Assembly (NCBI GenBank): GCA_023268615.1
Contig: JALQUC010000041.1
Coordinates: 1-48,179, forward strand
Length of the DNA: 48,179 nt
Reading direction: 5' to 3'
DNA from: Candidatus Altimarinota bacterium
GTDB taxonomy: Bacteria; Patescibacteriota; Gracilibacteria; BD1-5; JAGOOR01
Shown: one piece after another, positions 8,395-27,933 of the stretch
Layout of the letters: each line of letters begins with the position of its first letter
How positions within the stretch are numbered: the stretch's first letter is position 1
Notes under the pieces: model-generated
What the model was told of the DNA's origin: nothing
Database searches by the model: none
What the model saw: the letters and a program-made list of their open reading frames with translations, nothing else
Translations under genes and position numbers: made by a program

Positions 8395-8471
8395 TGGAGC
8401 GGACGATGGGACTCGAACCCACAACAACCTGCTTGGAAGGCAGGAGCTCTAGCCAATTGAGCTACGTCCGC
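8395..8471 (-). tRNA. tRNA-Gly(UCC)
   Basis: A complete cloverleaf is visible on the minus strand. It has a 7-bp acceptor GCGGACG/CGTCCGC, an anticodon stem CCTGC/GCAGG with loop CTTCCAA (anticodon UCC), and a T-arm with GTTCGAGTC. The discriminator is U followed by an encoded CCA (8395-8397), as in bacterial glycine tRNAs. It reads GGA/GGG. It is not the UGA-reading tRNA-Gly(UCA), which was not found in this window. Confidence 0.95.
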
Positions 8472-19063: not shown

Positions 19064-20512
19064 TTATTTTTTCTCCAAAGTAAAACCTTCTTTTGTGTCT
19101 ATGAGGGTATAGCCAGCATCTTCTATTTGTTTTCTGATTGCATCTGCGCGAGCGAAATCTTTGTTTTTCTTTGCTTCCATTCTCTCTTCTGCGAGGGTGG
19201 TTATCTCTGCAGGTATGACTGCTTCATTTAGGAGATTCCAATCCATCACGCCCATCACCATGTCCCATGATTTGAGAATTTCTATGACGGATGATACTTC
19301 TTTTGTCGTGAGGGAGAGATCATCTATATCGCGATTGACTCGTGTTATAAAATCAAAGACACTTGCCAGAGCATTGACTGTATCGATATCATTTTCGAGA
19401 GCCTCGACAAATACTCCCATAGATTCCTGTATCACATCACGAAATTCTCTGCGTACTTTGGTATTTCTCGGTGTGTAGGATTTGATTCTCTTGAGCGTAT
19501 TATCGAGAGAAGAAATAGTTGACATAGCACCCTCGAGACGATCAAATGTGAAATTGAAATTCTCACGATAACGATTCTGCAGACACATCATGCGAAACGC
19601 TCGATAGAGAAGAGGTTTCTTGTCTGGGTATTTTTCTTCGAGATCATGTAGGAAATAAAAATTGCCGAGTGATTTCCCCATTTTTTTCCCATCAACGAGG
19701 AGGTGACCAGTATGCATCCAGTAGTTGCAGAACTTTTTTCAGGTAATTCATTCTGTTTGAGCTATTTCATTTTGATGATGAGGAAAAATGAGATCGATTC
19801 AGCCCATGTGTATATCGATTTGTTCTCCATGTCACCACATATTACATGCACTGCACTCAATATGCCAACCTGGTCTTCCTTTGAGAATTTTTTCTCCATC
19901 CTGAGTCTGAAATTTCGCCTCCCAGTAATTTGCACCATCAGCTTTATCATAGCCTTTCCAGAGAGCAAAATCTGCAACACTTTCTTTTTCATATTCATCC
20001 TGCTTGACGCGTGCGCCAGCCTTCATGCCCTTCATGTCGAGATGAGCGAGATTACCATAATTTTTGAAACTCTTGATGTCAAAATAGACAGAACCATCGT
20101 CGCTCACATAGGCGTGTTTTTTATCGATGAGCTTCTGTGTCATGGCTATCATTTCTGGTACGAGTTCAGAGATAGGCTTGTGCCGAGTGAAGCTCTTAAT
20201 TCACAACTTCGCGAGATCCTGAAAAAATAAATCAGTGTATATCTGAGTGAATTCCCGAAGTGTTTTATGTTCCTTCTGGCTGTCACGGATAGTCTTGTCA
20301 TCTATATCTGTCAGGTTCATGAGTGCATCGACGCTGTACCCGAGAAATTCGAGACTGCGGATCACAATATCATCAAAAATATAGCAGCAAAGATTTCATA
20401 TCTGTGCATGATTATACACCGTAGGACCACAAGCGTAGTACTTGACCTTGTCGTCATTGAGAGGTTTAAATGGTTCCATCGAACGGGAGAGGGTGTTGTA
20501 GAGGTGGAGCAT
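19064..20512 (-). CDS. cysS: Cysteinyl-tRNA synthetase
   Basis: 482 residues, class I synthetase. It has [15 protein letters not shown] (HIGH-type box near 28-42, zinc Cys), the ECSAC zinc motif, [10 protein letters not shown] with the zinc His, and the KMSKS-type loop as KMGKSLGN near 277-284, where the central Ser is replaced by Gly (GGG codon). The C-terminal anticodon-binding bundle is complete. The glycine of the HIGH-type box is encoded by TGA, strong evidence for UGA=Gly. A TATACT lies at 20528-20523, so the leader would be only about 4-5 nt. First gene of the cysS-aminotransferase-tsaB-PH-ung operon. Confidence 0.95.
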
Positions 20513-20570
20513 AGTGAGAGTGAGTATATTCGATTATTTTTCTGTTCGGGGTCTTTTTTTATGAATGTTG

Positions 20571-20598
20571 TTGACAGGTTTAGATTATAATTTAGTAT
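20571..20598 (+). promoter_or_regulatory. Promoter of the giant coiled-coil gene
   Basis: A perfect -35 TTGACA (20571-20576), a 16-base spacer and TAGTAT (20593-20598). The predicted start near 20605 gives a leader of about 28 nt before ATG 20633. No Shine-Dalgarno is visible in that leader. Confidence 0.55.
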
Positions 20599-20632
20599 GA
20601 TTTTAATACAAATCGTTTTCTGAATTTTTTAC

Positions 20633-23600
20633 ATGGCACAATTTTCTCATACTAGCCAAACATCTCAGAATATACGAAAATGCCGCGAAAATATTTCTGC
20701 GAAGAGATTTTTGATGGGAGTAAAAAACGCCACTGTAGCAATGGCTCTTGCTCATAGCTCTGTTCAGTCCGACGAACTCACCCTTCCTGTAGGTGTATCG
20801 ATCATTCATGCAAATGCGGAGCAATCAAATCTCATCAGACAAAATGCACAAATGTGTCACGAACTCTGAGAGAGCAGCCAACATGGCTACAAAGTCTTAT
20901 TTGTCATGACTGATACACCACAAACTATTACCGTCCGTGCATGAGAGGAATTCCCCGTCTATTATTATGGTGATCAAGATCGATTTTTTGCACGATTAAA
21001 TCCTCAGAATACCCCAGAAATTTCAACAGATTTGAATCACTGGGAACAGTGTAGTGATGAAAATAGGATACCAGTTTTTCGTGAAAATCCTGAAATATTA
21101 TCTGATGTGAATTCTCAAATAGAAGTTTTGGCTGACCTGAATGCAAGTGAACAGTCTCTCGTAACTGCTCTTTCAGAAGAAGTCATTGAATTGGAACAAT
21201 TAGGTGAATCGCTCAATACTTCTCATGCAGAGCTCAGTCAGCTCGATATACAGAGAGATGAAGTCTTTTCCGTATTGGATCAAGAGATTTCGGAACAGCA
21301 GGTTCTTGAGGCAACTATGATTCCAGAGGAACAACTCCGAGAAGATATCCATCCAGTTGTATCTTCTTCAGCAATGAGCGATGTTGATAAAAATGATGAG
21401 ACTCAGGTAGCCCTAGATACATACCGCCAAAATGTAATTAATCCAGCTGAATTGTCACCTTCAGAATCAGGCGTTAACACTATTCCTGAGCTTGCGAACA
21501 CCCAACTCACCATTTCATATCTTACTCAAGAGCTTACGAGAATACATTGAAGTATTAATACAGTCGATGCTCAGATAGCAACCAAACAAAATGATATCAA
21601 CACTACACAAAATACGATTCAGTCTCTCCAAAGTTCAATAAATCAATTAACTACTCAGATTACACAATACGCTAATAATTACACTTATTGGAGAGATGAA
21701 TACAATAGAATTATTGCTCTGATTACGAGCTACAATGCTGAGGTTACAGCACAGTCGACTAATTATTCCAATAGTAGATCAGTATTGATGAACGCATGAA
21801 GAAATGATGTACCAAGTGATATAACAGCATATAATCTATCAACACTTCTCTCAAATCTCAAAAACACAATTCTAAACGAATATAATTCTGTACCATATGC
21901 ACAGAATACATGACCAGTCTGAACTGATTATAATCTCCCAGATGAGACATCTTCTATTCGTGACTATCTGGGCTCTCAGTATTATTATGTGGTTGATTTC
22001 CCATCTTCTGGCAAGAGCTGGCCAGCGACGCTCAGACTCTATGTGAAACTCCTAGGAGCTACGAGTTTTACACAACTGAATTCGTACCCAGTACAAAATA
22101 GAACTCATGCTATTAACATGTTTAATGGCACAGCAAAGCCGCAAGCAGAAAAACTCGCACAGTACAAGTATGTTGATGATGTGCTCGAGAGACATTATGA
22201 ACTCTATCAATCTGCAAAGAATAGTGCCGAGCAACAATATGGTCCTCGTGATACTGCTAAGACAAATCGTGACGCTGCAAAGAGTCAGCTCGACATAGCT
22301 TATACACTTAATGACCAGAAACAGGCCGAGATGTCAAATCTCCAATCTCAGCAGAATCTCCTTGTTCAACAGAAAGCTGAACTGGAAAATCTCAAGTCTA
22401 TAAAATCAAATCTCCAGGCTCTCTATAATCAAGTCCAGGTTATTCTCAATAATCTCAAAAATCATATTGTCACTCACGAGCAAGTATCCTGAGAAATACA
22501 AAATTTGCTTACACAGTACGGTATATTGGAAGAGCAAATAGCGGATTTGGTAGAAGTTGTAGAATCAAAAATTGTTGCCACAAATGCACAGATAAAAAAA
22601 GTGGAATCAATGACTATGACTCTGACAGGCACGACGGCTCAGATAACAACACAAACAAACGATCTTGCCAGTTTATTTGAGAGAAATTTTGTTATAAAGC
22701 CTCGAGATTGAATCAATAGTCAGGCTCTCACTTATTCGCAGGTTGCTGAATATTTCAGCTACGCATATCGTACGAGTATGTGACCTGTTTCCGATGGCAT
22801 GTTAAGGAGTCGCGCAATTGTTGAGTATCTCGATAATTGAACAAAGGAAGACCTCTATCCTGCTCGGTTATCCTATGAATATAAAATTAATGGAAAAGTT
22901 TATTTTACGCCCCAGGTAGTGATCAATAATCTCGAACATAAATGAGTTATTGCTGAGTTATCCAAGATTGCATTATCAGAATTGTCATCATGTTTGTGAG
23001 AAATTTCAAAATGATCTGATCTCAATGATGGTATGAGAAAAATGTGGGATACGATTAGGTTAAAAATTCTGTCCACTACTTCATCTACAGATGAAAATGC
23101 TCGCATCCGTGAATATGAAAATCTCAAAAAGAAAACTATAGAAGATGTTATTTTATCTGGATGATCACAGGCATTTTTTGATCATTTATTGCTACATGAG
23201 CAGAGTTTTCGCCAGAGAGTGGAACAGCTGATCAGTTCTATCGCACAGAACCAATGAGTAGAAGAAGGAACTCATGAATATGAAGAATTACACAAAACTC
23301 TCGTCCAAATTTTTGCTCAAGATTTCTGAAAATCATTGACGGAGATTGGATTCTCAGGCCTCACAACATACACAAATTTCAGACTTTTTGCTGATTCTCA
23401 TATCGCTATGATGGCAAATGAATTTTCTGCAAACAGCATTGTTCTTGATATAAATGATAATTGGAGTACTGATGATCATGGCAATAAATATAAGTATTGA
23501 TTGTGTAGTTTGAATGGAGACAATTATCCAAAATATGTATGGATGTCCTATTCACCAGACGGTATCTCTGTTCAGACCGTTGGTCCTGTCGTGGTCAATA

Positions 23601-24493
23601 ATTTGTGAGAGTTATTTCAACAGAAAGAGAGGTGGAGAAAAAACTTACTTCAATCAAAAGTGTCTCACACAAATTATAGCGAATGAGCTTATGATATTTT
23701 TCAGTGATGGAGTGATGAGGGGGAGAGGGTGTGGTGGGGGCAATATGTATATTGATCTGTAAAACAATGAACACCGTTTAGTGAATCCTTAGCTTGATTA
23801 GAAAAGGAAATAAGGAATGTGATGAAGTCATCTTCTGACTTGAGTGTCAGATATGATTTTATAAAATATGTGTATAAAGGAAATTTGTCTTACAGTCTTC
23901 TTCAGCAAATTTACGCAAGCTGACAGACCGTTGAGCAATTTATAAGTTCACATGATGCCACAAGCAAACTAAATTCACTAATTCAGAAATTAGAAAATGA
24001 GCTTACTTATTGAAATTTCACAAGATTCGAGAAACTTGTTTGAAATTGATGAGATTGTGATGTTAAAAGAAATCCAGATTTTGAAAGTATATCATTTTTA
24101 GATCCAGATAATAATGAGTCATCAGTTTTTGTAAACTGAACAGTTGTATCCAGGTCACAGTTATGAAATTTCCTCGTAGGATATTGAGGAAAAGAAATTG
24201 GTTTAAATTTTCCATTAATCTGCGCAGGCTCTCTTTATAAACAGTTTGAAACATATAATTCAAATAAAATTAGTTATGGTCTTCAGAGGCTCAATAGAGA
24301 ACATATTCTTCAGCTAGCTGAACTTAATGAAAAAGAAGATAGATTTTTGTATCTAGCAGGTTATTCATACAATTGAGCATGATCTGGTGAAGAAATTCAT
24401 GCTTATATTGAATATATGAGAGAGTTATCTCTAAAACAAGCGTTAAAAGATTTTAGTGAAATTAATAGATTAAAATCTTTAAATGATTTCTAA
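20633..24493 (+). CDS. Giant secreted/surface coiled-coil-rich protein, 1286 residues
   Basis: One uninterrupted frame from ATG to TAA if more than 30 TGA codons are read as Gly. With the standard code it would be dozens of fragments. The N-terminus has a long basic leader and a hydrophobic stretch (about residues 27-41) ending in an AxA-type site (MALA), so export is likely. Residues about 150-300 and 300-370 and the segment about 530-700 are heptad-like coiled coils rich in Gln, Asn and Leu (for example TQNTIQSLQSSINQLTTQI). Between and after them lie globular regions with Trp/Tyr-rich strands (YVWMSYSPDGISV near 970). No known domain recognised. The size, export and helical rods suggest a surface or fibre protein. 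It heads an AT-rich cluster of small membrane-protein genes. Confidence 0.7.
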
Positions 24494-24503
24494 ACACATT
24501 TTT

Positions 24504-25158
24504 TATGTACAAAATGATTTTGCTAGGTATATTTTTAGTTCATAGTTATACATATATTTCATTTTGAGATATAGTTTGATTTGTAACTTATAAATTTGAA
24601 GGTGATTTTTATTTTATGAGCACCGAAGTGGAGAATGATAATTCCTCTCTATCTACTTTTGCTAATGAAGTTATTAATAAAAAAATGCAAAGTTGAGATA
24701 TAGTGGAAATAACAAGATTAACTTGTTCCTCATGAGATTTATATTGTTATAACCAGGGCACAGAGATGGTTAAATGAAAAAAAAATTTAGTTGATTCAAT
24801 TGTGTTGAATAGTAAGGAAGAGCTCTTAAAAATAGCTCTTTTAGTTTACGCCAAGTACTTTTTTACTGTTCTTTTGATTATTTTTTGAATAGTATTTATT
24901 CTAAAATGAGCTATTTTCAGTAGTAAAGATAAGAAAATTTACTTAACCCTAGTTGTCCTACCAATCCTTATCTTATTTTTTGATATTATCTTGTTTTACC
25001 TAAATTTACACCCAGTATTTTTTGATTTAGGTTTTAGGATTTTCAATTATGTTAGTTGCATGGTATTGTTTTTTTTATTGTATGTAGTTTTTGACTTAAT
25101 GATTACTAAAAAATTAACACAGAGATCGCTAACAGGTCAGTCCAAAAATTCCCACTAA
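24504..25158 (+). CDS. Small membrane protein, probable 1-base frameshift near its start
   Basis: The main frame (24541-25158) is open to TAA and coding-like. It has a soluble region with GDIVEITRLTCSSGDLYCYN followed by three membrane spans (about residues 105-130, 140-165, 175-200), and ends in QSKNSH. Its best ATG in that frame is 24616, but the sequence upstream of it (YISFGDIVGFVTYKFEGDFYF) still looks coding. A hydrophobic leader MYKMILLGIFLV begins 11 bases after the giant gene in another frame (ATG 24504). Dropping one C of the CC at 24540-24541 joins the two. AT-richer than the core genes. Position and form would suit an accessory or immunity-type protein, which is inference only. 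Confidence 0.5.
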
Positions 25159-25400
25159 AAATCACTTGTGAAGATTATAAAATCCAGTACATTAGGAGCA
25201 TATGAAGATTACTAGTCTCTTTCTCGTCATCCTCACGATATTTTCGGTATCGGTGTTTTTTTGGTTGCAAAAAGAAAATCACTGTATCGTTGCTTCGAGT
25301 CGTGGAGACTGGATATTTGAAGTGGCTCGTACTCGTGAAGAGCATATGCGAGGACTCATGAATCGGACAAATATGTGTGACAGGTGTGGTATGCTCTTTA
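25137..25400. repeat. 264-bp direct repeat, copy 1
   Basis: Aligns without gaps to 26340-26603 (offset 1203), with about 20 mismatches (about 92% identity). The first 60 bases, covering the last seven codons of the preceding gene, its stop and the intergenic spacer, are identical. Most differences are in the DUF192 coding part and many are silent. The divergence shows a real ancient duplication and not an assembly repeat. Confidence 0.92.
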
Positions 25401-25405
25401 AATGA
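25202..25405 (+). pseudogene. Truncated DUF192 gene (5' portion only)
   Basis: The first 66 or so codons match the intact DUF192 gene at 26405: signal peptide MKITSLFLVILTIFSVSVFFW, then WIFEVARTREEHMRGLMNRT. Homology stops at 25400, before the central FWMKNT region. With UGA as Gly the frame drifts on to TAA 25658-25660, but that extension is out of phase with the more protein-like frame there. It is a duplicated leader left at the edge of the inserted cassette and possibly still expresses a short secreted peptide. Confidence 0.75.
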
Positions 25406-25406
25406 T

Positions 25407-25772
25407 GGGAGAAATCCATATATGTTATGATGAAGGGTATATTTTTTGGGTCAGCCAATTGATTTAGCAGATGCATGAAATGTTCTCTTGGGGTACAACG
25501 CAGAGAAAATAGGATTAAGTATCTCAGAAACAGTTTTGGGGTGACTTATTGCCCAATGATGAATTGAATCCCTGAGATATTTAGGCGTTGAATACGATGA
25601 GTGGTCTGAAAAGGGAGGAGATTTATCTGGTCTTATTGAGCTGATAAATTGATTACCTAATTCAGCCATGAATGCAGCATATCAAAATGAAGCAACAGAT
25701 AGAATTCTTTATTTAAAGTGATTTAATGCTGTAGATATATCTCCAAAAGGTATTCTTAATTTAATTAGGTAA
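25407..25772 (+). pseudogene. Orphan C-terminal fragment, possibly toxin-tail like
   Basis: A frame different from the truncated DUF192 start is open from the end of the repeat to TAA 25770-25772, about 121 residues. It begins with NPYMLGGRVYFLGQPIDLA, then DAGNVLLGYNAEKIGLS, an AQGG segment and a PNSAMNAAYQNEATDRILY helix. D-x-GN-x-x-x-GY followed by A-Q reminds me of the C-terminal tips of polymorphic toxins (type 44-like). That is a weak resemblance, not an established match. There is no start codon ahead of the conserved part that would give a complete domain, so it looks like the 3' end of a gene brought in by recombination. The next gene starts 1 base after its stop. Confidence 0.4.
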
Positions 25773-25773
25773 T

Positions 25774-26361
25774 ATGAAAAAAATATTTTATATAGTGGGC
25801 GGTATTTTGTTTATAATAACAATATTAGCACTTAAATTTTTTTATCTCGATTTGCCTTCCAGAAGGTTTGAATATCAAAAATATATACTGGAATTAACAG
25901 CAATTTCCAAGGAATCAGTCAATATTTTAAATAATGATGAAACTGTTCAAAAGTTGTCAAAAAATCATCTTGTATTTTCAGATTGTTGAGTTAATGTCAG
26001 TTGTGAAAAAGAAGCTGATTCTTACTTATTTACTAGACAAAAAATTCCTGAAAAAATAGCATTTTATAGGTGTGATTCAATATTTTGAGCTTTATTTGTC
26101 CGTGAAGAAAAAAATAAATTCTTAGAAAATTACATTTTTTCTTATCATGTGTACTCGTCTTCTCCATGAAAGATACAGCTTACAGGAATTTCATTCAGTA
26201 AAAATTCTGATAGTTGGCTTGAGTATGACCAGTATTTTGATTTATGAAAATATGACCCATGCTACCCATGGAACAACCTAGAAAACTATTGGAAAATATA
26301 TGGCAAAGCGACACCAGAAGAGATACAAGCTGTCATAGATCAGTCCAAAAATTCCCACTAA
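25774..26361 (+). CDS. Membrane-anchored hypothetical protein (candidate immunity partner)
   Basis: 195 residues. One N-terminal membrane span (about residues 4-24) is followed by an extracytoplasmic domain with four Cys (FSDCGVNVSCEKEAD, YRCDSIF, DPCYPW) and Trp/Tyr-rich strands. It ends in QSKNSH, the same tail as the gene ending at 25158, because the direct repeat begins 22 bases before the stop (third base of the codon before QSKNSH). It starts 1 base after the orphan fragment, the usual toxin-immunity spacing. No family recognised. AT-rich like the rest of the cassette. Confidence 0.6.
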
Positions 26362-26603
26362 AAATCACTTGTGAAGATTATAAAATCCAGTACATTAGGA
26401 GTGTATGAAGATTAGCAGCCTCTTTCTCATTCTCATGACGATATTTTCGGTATCGGTATTTTTTTGGTTGCAAAAAGAAAATCACTGTATCGTTGCTTCG
26501 AGTCAGGGAGACTGGATATTTGAAGTGGCTCGGACTCGTGAAGAGCATATGCGTGGACTCATGAATAGGACGAGTATGTGTGAGAGATGTGGTATGCTCT
26601 TTA
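26340..26603. repeat. 264-bp direct repeat, copy 2
   Basis: Second copy of 25137-25400. Here the repeat runs into the intact DUF192 gene, so this copy or its precursor is probably the ancestral location. The segment between copies (25401-26339) holds the orphan fragment and the membrane-anchored gene. Confidence 0.92.
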
Positions 26604-26836
26604 TGTTTGATACTGAGAGCCCGCAAGTTTTTTGGATGAAAAATACTTACCTCCCGTTGGATATGTATTTCTATGATGCCCAGTGAATGCTCGTGGATGT
26701 AGCTCGAAATATGCGACCAGAAGGGGAGACAGGAGAGCCTATGATCTATAAATCAAAACCAGCACAGTATGTCGTTGAAGTGCTTCAATGAAGTATATTC
26801 CCAACTGATTCTGTGGATATCCTTCACTGTAGATAA
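26405..26836 (+). CDS. Secreted DUF192 family protein
   Basis: 143 residues. Signal peptide or anchor MKISSLFLILMTIFSVSVFFW, then the DUF192 fold: FEVARTREEHMRGLMNRTSM, CERCGMLFMF, FWMKNTYLPLDMYFYD and QYVVEVLQGSI. DUF192 proteins are small exported proteins of unknown function, widespread in bacteria and archaea. A CxxC in the loop (MCERC) is a CPR-type addition. Two TGA-Gly codons join the C-terminal half. Its 5' third is duplicated at 25202. It is followed after 2 bases by the RlmL-like gene. Confidence 0.85.
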
Positions 26837-26838
26837 TT

Positions 26839-27933
26839 ATGACCAATTTTGTAGCGACATGTATCAGCGGGGTAGAATCCCTCGTTCGGGGAGAGCTGGA
26901 GAGGCAGGATATCCAGATTACCTATGGCCAGGATAAGATGGCAGCCTTTGAATGAGATATGATGACGCTCACTCGAGCGAATATCTGGTCTCGTGTAGCG
27001 AATCGTATCTATATCGAGGTAGAGAAGGTCGATGTGACATCTCTTGAGATGCTTTTTGCTGTGGTGGAGAGTATTGATTGGTCGCAGTGGATACCACTCG
27101 GGACGCCTATTATCGTCTCAGCTACGACGAGTCGGTCCGTCGTCACACATACTCCGAGCATGCAATCACTTGGTAAAAAGGCTATCATTCGTTCGCTTAT
27201 GAAGGGGGATGATTTCTGGAAAGAAAACGAACATTCTCACCCTATCGAAGTATTCCTCCTCCTCGTCAATGACGAGCTCCATGTCCTCATCAATACCTCT
27301 GGTGATGCATTGCACAAGAGGGGATACAGGACTGAGGCAGGGGAGGCACCACTCAAGGAATCTCTCGCAGCAGCACTTGTTCTCTTTAGTGGATGGAAAT
27401 TTCGCACACCACTCTATGATCCGATGTGCGGGAGCGGCACTATACTGATCGAAGCTGCTATGATAGCCAGAAATATTGCACCAGGCCTTCAGAGAGAATT
27501 TGATTACCTCTATTTTCCCTGGTACGACCTCCCATATCACGAAAAGGCTATCAAAGAAGCTCGCGAAAAGATATTTGCCAAATCATATCAAATCTTTGGA
27601 AGTGACCGAGATGAGTATATGGTCGATATAGCGTGTAAAAATGCCTCCCGGGCAGGCGTCCTCGATACTATCCAGTTTCGTGAAGGCGATATGGGGAGCG
27701 TTTCATTCATCCCAGATTCACACATTATCACCAATCCTCCATATGGAAAACGCCTCTGAGATGAGAATCTCGAGGAACTCTATGAGACCCTCGAACAGCA
27801 AATCCTCTCAAATAACCTCTCTGGATGAGTCATTACTTCTGTGGAGTATTTCCCAAAAAACCAGAAGAATTGGACCAAAAAGAACCTCATGAATGGGGCA
27901 GAAAAATGTCAGTTTTGGAGAAAGGGAATCTAG
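26839..27933 (+). CDS. THUMP-domain RNA (guanine-N2) methyltransferase, RlmL/TrmG-like
   Basis: 364 residues. An N-terminal ferredoxin-like/THUMP region (residues 1-160) contains the LHKRGYRTEAGEAPLKESLAAAL hallmark start of the RlmL/Trm14 methyltransferase domain. SAM motif I is DPMCGSGTILIEA (194-206) and the catalytic motif IV is NPPYGKRL near 299. It methylates N2 of a guanine in rRNA or tRNA. The C-terminal rRNA methyltransferase module of fused RlmKL is absent. TGA-Gly codons join the last 60 residues. It overlaps nothing and starts 2 bases after DUF192. Confidence 0.88.

What the first reader, a model, noticed from the sequence alone, without database searches (positions are those of the whole stretch)
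20633..24493. 1286-residue exported coiled-coil protein of unknown family
One open frame with over 30 TGA-Gly codons, a probable signal peptide and several long heptad segments alternating with aromatic-rich globular parts. It heads a cluster of small membrane genes. In host-dependent or predatory CPR cells such a protein could act in surface attachment. It would be invisible to standard-code annotation.
Basis: partly seen in the sequence, partly recalled or inferred. Interest (0 to 1): 0.6.

Follow-up and report, generated by a model that had tools for sequence, protein, structure and literature searches.

The report
Swappable toxin with immunity gene remnants
The long coiled-coil protein ends in a small bacterial-toxin-like domain, is followed by its likely protective membrane protein, and sits next to the broken remains of an older toxin and that toxin's still-intact protector, so this tiny host-dependent bacterium probably fights close relatives with a toxin whose tip can be swapped.

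Summary
The open frame is real: 1286 codons with 33 TGA-Gly, shattered under the standard code, and it has long coiled-coil helices. The signal peptide is not convincing, and the attachment idea has no support. The last ~187 residues are a divergent relative of the polymorphic-toxin domain Ntox44. They keep its DxK and GNxxxG motifs, the third motif is NxxxD instead of DxxxD, and the score is below Pfam's cut-off. Directly downstream lie a four-TM protein (imm1), then a 267-nt direct repeat carrying the start of a DUF192 gene, a truncated second Ntox44-like tip, an intact membrane-anchored protein (imm2), and the complete DUF192 gene. Both putative immunity genes end in the same six codons at the repeat edge, the footprint expected when an incoming toxin-immunity module displaces a resident one. 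A genome of the same genus has the empty site: cysS and DUF192 are 86 bp apart there, against 5.9 kb here. In five other genomes of the class, the gene after every Ntox44 tip that could be checked encodes a 3-4 TM protein. Best reading: a polymorphic toxin on a platform with no detectable relatives, delivering an envelope-acting tip against kin or neighbours. Toxicity, immunity and export are inferred, not shown.

The parts
20571..20598 (+). promoter-like site TTGACA-16-TAGTAT
   Evidence: highest-scoring + strand match in 20400-26900; the number of matches in the region is no more than in shuffles, so weak
20633..24493 (+). 1286-aa putative polymorphic toxin, code 25
   Evidence: open frame with 33 TGA-Gly; chance control
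20633..23929 (+). platform, aa 1-1099, no detectable relatives
   Evidence: no relative in 147 related genomes, viral contigs, plasmids, phages or GTDB genomes
21089..21313 (+). coiled-coil helix aa 153-227
   Evidence: AlphaFold single-sequence model
21482..21793 (+). coiled-coil helix aa 284-387
   Evidence: heptad measure
22247..22687 (+). coiled-coil helices aa 539-614 and 620-685
23930..24493 (+). C-terminal Ntox44-like toxin tip (CT1), aa 1100-1286
   Evidence: PF15607 E 0.0013-0.0018, 19-20 bits against a cut-off of 24; only PF15607 match in the whole genome; start set by similarity to an Rhs-borne tip from residue 1101
24505..25158 (+). putative immunity protein imm1, 217 aa, N-terminal hydrophobic segment plus 3 TM
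   Evidence: hydropathy; position directly after the tip; 3-4 TM genes follow related tips
25134..25400 (+). direct repeat copy 1: last codons of imm1, intergenic DNA, 5' part of a DUF192 gene (broken)
   Evidence: 267 nt, 92% identical to 26337-26603; DUF192 match E 2.4e-6 over half the profile
25401..25772 (+). orphan truncated second Ntox44-like tip (CT2), 5' half missing
   Evidence: BLASTP to CT1 E 3e-5, 28% over 97 aa; GNxxxG and NxxxD kept; top of all window ORFs and 6000 shuffles with a small Ntox44 HMM that includes the L007 tip
25774..26361 (+). putative orphan immunity protein imm2, 195 aa, one N-terminal TM, Cys-containing outer part
   Evidence: intact frame, hydropathy; shares the terminal QSKNSH with imm1
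26337..26603 (+). direct repeat copy 2: end of imm2, intergenic DNA, 5' part of the intact DUF192 gene
26405..26836 (+). intact DUF192 gene, right border of the block
   Evidence: PF02643 E 2.7e-24; 80% identical to L055:139 onward
19064..20512 (-). cysS, left border of the block
   Evidence: tRNA-synt_1e E 9e-89; its first bases match L055:1-52

Best explanation
The gene encodes a polymorphic toxin. A long coiled-coil platform carries a replaceable C-terminal Ntox44-like tip, and the next gene (imm1) encodes a membrane immunity protein that protects the producer. The locus has changed tips. A resident toxin with tip CT2 and immunity imm2 stood between the platform and DUF192. DNA from a related code-25 strain brought CT1, imm1 and the start of its own DUF192 gene. 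It recombined in the platform upstream and joined illegitimately inside CT2 downstream, leaving CT2 truncated, imm2 intact and the DUF192 start duplicated. Because both immunity candidates face or span the membrane, the tip most likely acts on the envelope (membrane or wall) of competing kin or neighbouring cells. Shown: anatomy, tip similarity (sub-threshold), repeat, orphan tip, empty site, TM linkage in relatives. Inferred: toxicity, immunity, export route, target and the order of recombination.
For: (1) PF15607 matches the C-terminus at E 0.013 (whole protein), 0.0013-0.0018 (tip alone) and is the only match in the genome. DxK and GNxxxG, two of the published Ntox44 motifs (PMC3482391), are present as DVK and GNFLVG. 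(2) A second, truncated copy of the same domain lies 0.9 kb downstream and is followed by another membrane protein. (3) A 267-nt, 92% direct repeat starts inside the last codons of both immunity genes and runs into DUF192, so both modules once sat at the same place. DUF192 copies are 91% identical to each other and 79-81% to the congener, so the incoming DNA came from a lineage closer than G001. (4) In a same-genus genome the 5.9 kb block is absent: L055 joins the cysS start (1-52) and DUF192 (139) with 86 bp between. (5) GC falls at the tip: platform 0.378 (GC3 0.31), tip 0.289 (0.155), imm1 0.264, imm2 0.292, DUF192 0.417. (6) A same-order code-25 genome carries a related tip (31% over 99 aa, E 0.002) as an orphan Rhs module, also with a multi-TM gene behind it. 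Four other genomes of the class with above-cut-off Ntox44 tips have 3-4 TM genes next. The background rate of such genes is 13.5%, so 5/5 is about 4.5e-5. (7) Displacement with retention of old immunity genes is described for Vibrio T6SS arrays (PMC5361080).
Against: The Ntox44 score is below Pfam's curated cut-off and the third motif is NxxxD, not DxxxD. A small profile-profile comparison was weak (hhalign probability 14%, E 0.002), and an HMM from three standard-code tips alone did not separate CT1 or CT2 from shuffles. No known trafficking domain and no convincing signal peptide was found. Structure models are poor (mean pLDDT 45-49) and no solved fold matched. imm1 and imm2 match no known immunity family. 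Misassembly of strain variants cannot be excluded without reads.
Confidence: 0.75

Rival explanations
1. Host-directed weapon: the same protein is used by an epibiotic or predatory cell against its bacterial host or prey, and the downstream membrane proteins protect the producer from its own envelope-acting tip.
For: A cultivated relative kills its bacterial host on contact and encodes predicted secreted cell-wall hydrolases (PMC8080830). Immunity candidates face the envelope.
Against: Orphan tip plus retained immunity gene and presence/absence within a genus are the pattern of kin competition. A weapon aimed only at a distant host gives less reason to keep old immunity genes.
Confidence: 0.2
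2. Surface adhesin or attachment stalk: coiled coils hold the cell to its host and the C-terminus has no enzymatic role.
For: Long coiled coils; aromatic-rich globular parts; host-dependent lifestyle of the clade (PMC11452946).
Against: No membrane anchor or canonical signal peptide; Ntox44-like tip and a second copy of it with its own putative immunity gene; block absent in a congener.
Confidence: 0.07
3. Ordinary local duplication: DUF192 and neighbours were tandemly duplicated and decayed; the protein is an unrelated coiled-coil protein and the Ntox44 similarity is chance.
For: Ntox44 scores are below the cut-off; short duplications are common.
Against: The duplicated part starts in the last codons of two otherwise unrelated genes, and CT1 and CT2 are related to each other and to an Rhs orphan tip.
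Confidence: 0.08
4. Chimeric assembly of two strain variants carrying different modules.
For: Fragmented genome (44 contigs); the congener's contig starts 138 bp before DUF192, close to this junction.
Against: The DUF192'-CT2 junction lies at the edge of the repeat, not inside a long identical stretch that would mislead an assembler. Even so, both modules would exist as alleles, which keeps the polymorphic-toxin reading.
Confidence: 0.1

Closest known systems
Ntox44 / Bacterial toxin 44 (PF15607) polymorphic toxins
   Same: C-terminal position, DxK and GNxxxG motifs, mostly helical tip in a low-confidence model, module found on different N-terminal platforms, orphan copies
   Different: Sub-threshold score, NxxxD in place of DxxxD in all three code-25 members (CT1, CT2, L007), platform is not Rhs, LXG/WXG or PAAR; the 2012 survey listed no immunity partner for Ntox44
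Rhs toxin with orphan Ntox44-like tip in same-order genome G003 (L032)
   Same: Code 25, related tip, multi-TM gene behind each tip, orphan module next to the main toxin
   Different: Rhs shell with a hydrophobic Sec-type leader; the orphan keeps a piece of Rhs core; no DUF192 repeat seen
Vibrio cholerae T6SS effector-immunity arrays (PMC5361080)
   Same: New module displaces the old effector while the old immunity gene stays; homology-facilitated illegitimate recombination proposed
   Different: No T6SS part seen here; the old toxin remains as a fragment and the duplicated anchor is the start of a neighbouring gene

Membership tests
Ntox44 (PF15607) | score above curated cut-off (24 bits) | tested here: not met
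   19.1-19.6 bits on the tip
Ntox44 (PF15607) | DxK motif | tested here: met
   DVK in CT1 aligned with DIK/DLK of above-cut-off members; lost by truncation in CT2
Ntox44 (PF15607) | GNxxxG motif | tested here: met
   GNFLVG in CT1, GNVLLG in CT2
Ntox44 (PF15607) | DxxxD motif | tested here: not met
   NEKED in CT1, NEATD in CT2, NEIDD in L007: last D kept, first D is N
Polymorphic toxin system | C-terminal toxin domain shared by different platforms | tested here: met
   related tip on Rhs in G003; sub-threshold similarity
Polymorphic toxin system | immunity gene directly downstream | tested here: inconclusive
   position and TM linkage fit, no match to a known immunity family, function untested
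Polymorphic toxin system | orphan toxin-immunity cassettes / tip exchange | tested here: met
   CT2-imm2 with direct repeat; whole block absent in congener
Polymorphic toxin system | recognisable secretion or trafficking domain | tested here: not met
   no Pfam or NCBIfam trafficking domain; signal peptide unconvincing
Polymorphic toxin system | toxicity neutralised by the cognate immunity protein | not testable with these tools
   needs expression

The most novel reading that the evidence does not exclude
A new class of polymorphic-toxin platform, built on coiled coils and private to code-25 CPR bacteria, delivers Ntox44-like tips that act on the envelope and are countered by membrane immunity proteins. 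Because the tips and immunity genes use TGA for glycine (including the invariant Gly of GNxxxG), exchange would be confined to code-25 cells, making the altered code a barrier that keeps the arms race inside the clade.
Probability: 0.35. Interest if true: 0.72.

Novelty: new variant of a known kind. Interest (0 to 1): 0.55.

Why it matters
Antagonism systems of host-dependent CPR bacteria are poorly known; one metaproteogenomic study of Gracilibacteria does not mention toxins at all. If right, this shows that tiny epibiotic cells compete with kin through swappable toxins, that these are hidden from standard-code annotation, and that Ntox44, for which no immunity partner was listed in the 2012 survey, is paired with membrane immunity proteins in this class, pointing to an envelope target.

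Tried and rejected
Platform relatives: whole protein in 147 related genomes, residues 688-1286 in 380 genomes of the phylum, the N-terminal 161 residues in 192 genomes of the class, viral contigs, GTDB contigs, plasmids, phages: none credible; the best weak hit (G336) was not supported on inspection and was dropped. imm1 and imm2 in 341 genomes each: only weak, mostly TM-driven matches; the imm1 match in L101 is to a small, unrelated-looking TM protein. Relatives of the tips by degenerate pattern: none. AlphaFold of aa 681-1286 with six tips: pLDDT 49; Foldseek against PDB: nothing at E<=0.001. SMC-type NCBIfam and PADLOC hits are generic coiled-coil similarity far below cut-offs. PDB sequence searches: nothing meaningful. 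Alternative start 20597 with a hydrophobic leader: disfavoured by the promoter position, weak evidence.

Full report
Observation. The frame 20633-24493 is open under code 25 with 33 TGA codons and is broken into pieces of at most 172 aa under table 11. Twenty simulated windows gave no stop-free run above 378 codons. TGA is read as glycine in this genome: TGA codons fall on conserved Obg glycines of the window, several shared in position with the same-genus genome G001. The genome has 966 kb in 44 contigs. Coiled coils are supported. The signal peptide is not: the putative leader is weakly hydrophobic and interrupted by Lys.

What it is. The only domain signal outside coiled coils that recurs in every form of the search is PF15607 (Ntox44) at the C-terminus, below the curated cut-off, and it is the genome's only PF15607 match. 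The published motifs are DxK, GNxxxG and DxxxD (PMC3482391). The tip has DVK and GNFLVG; the third motif reads NEKED. The same N substitution appears in the two other code-25 members, CT2 and L007, so it looks like a subfamily trait rather than decay. BLASTP links the tip from residue 1101 to an Rhs-borne tip in same-order genome G003 (31% over 99 aa, E 0.002), which places the platform/tip border near residue 1100.

Surroundings. After the stop come imm1 (217 aa, hydrophobic N-terminus plus three TM segments) and a 267-nt direct repeat that recurs 1203 bp further on at 92% identity. The repeat begins in the last codons of imm1 and of imm2, whose proteins otherwise share nothing but a final QSKNSH, and continues into the 5' part of a DUF192 gene. 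Copy 1 of DUF192 breaks off at 25400 and runs into a fragment, 25401-25772, that matches the second half of the tip (E 3e-5). imm2 and then a complete DUF192 gene follow. The DUF192 copies are 91% identical to each other, and each is 79-81% identical to that of G001.

Empty site. In G001 the first 52 bases of contig C34 match the start of cysS (window 20463-20514; cysS identified) and DUF192 begins at base 139. Eighty-six bases there correspond to 5.9 kb here. The block is therefore present or absent within one genus. Direction (gain here or loss there) is not decided; the low GC of the tips and immunity genes (0.26-0.34 against 0.38 platform and 0.42 DUF192) suggests the tip modules came from elsewhere.

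Mechanism. The layout fits replacement of a toxin tip by an incoming module: recombination upstream in the platform and an illegitimate join downstream, leaving the old toxin truncated and the old immunity gene intact. This is the route proposed for Vibrio effector-immunity arrays (PMC5361080). Natural uptake is plausible, since a relative encodes ComEC, ComEA and type IV pili (PMC8080830), but was not tested in this genome. Tips and immunity genes use TGA for glycine (9 of 16 in CT1, 7 of 12 in imm1, 8 of 18 in CT2, 4 of 8 in imm2), so their last carriers were probably code-25 cells; this is an inference.

Target. In G087, G090, G309 and G310 the gene directly after an Ntox44 tip scoring above Pfam's cut-off encodes a 3-4 TM protein, and so does the gene after the G003 tip, which is itself sub-threshold. 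The G261 tip runs off its contig and could not be checked. Against a background of 13.5% such genes the five cases have probability about 4.5e-5 (simple hydropathy and a rough gene set, and the cases are not fully independent). With imm1 the count is six of six. imm2 has a single anchor and a Cys-bearing outer part. Membrane immunity implies an envelope target, as for CDI pore-formers or wall-acting effectors (general knowledge); the chemistry is unknown.

Limits. The family link is sub-threshold, profile-profile comparison was weak, an HMM from three standard-code tips alone did not separate CT1 and CT2 from shuffles while one including L007 did, structures are low-confidence, and no fold match was found. 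The platform has no relative in anything searched. Export, toxicity and immunity are untested. Because one motif and the score threshold fail, it is described as Ntox44-like and not filed as an Ntox44 member; that it works like a polymorphic toxin rests mainly on locus architecture.

Noticed in passing
L032 9596-16834 (-), 9199-9603 (-), 8548-9198 (-), 8195-8539 (-): Same-order code-25 genome G003 has a 2412-aa Rhs protein whose tip reads like a lysozyme/transglycosylase (my reading, no Pfam hit), a 134-aa multi-TM gene, then an orphan Rhs-core/Ntox44-like tip and a 114-aa multi-TM gene.
   Followed up: partly
L033, L035, L036, L037: Ntox44 tips in four standard-code members of the class are each followed by a 3-4 TM gene; three of the four tip proteins carry a hydrophobic Sec-type leader (the G309 contig is cut before its start).
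   Followed up: yes
L055 1-138: The congener's contig starts 138 bp before DUF192, so the empty site is seen with only 52 bases of cysS on its left side.
   Followed up: yes
window 26405-26836: The DUF192 gene serves as the right anchor of the exchange; whether it is a recombination anchor elsewhere in the clade was not checked.
   Followed up: no
window 8395-8471: tRNA-Gly with anticodon TCC; no tRNA-Gly(TCA) that would read TGA was found in this window.
   Followed up: no
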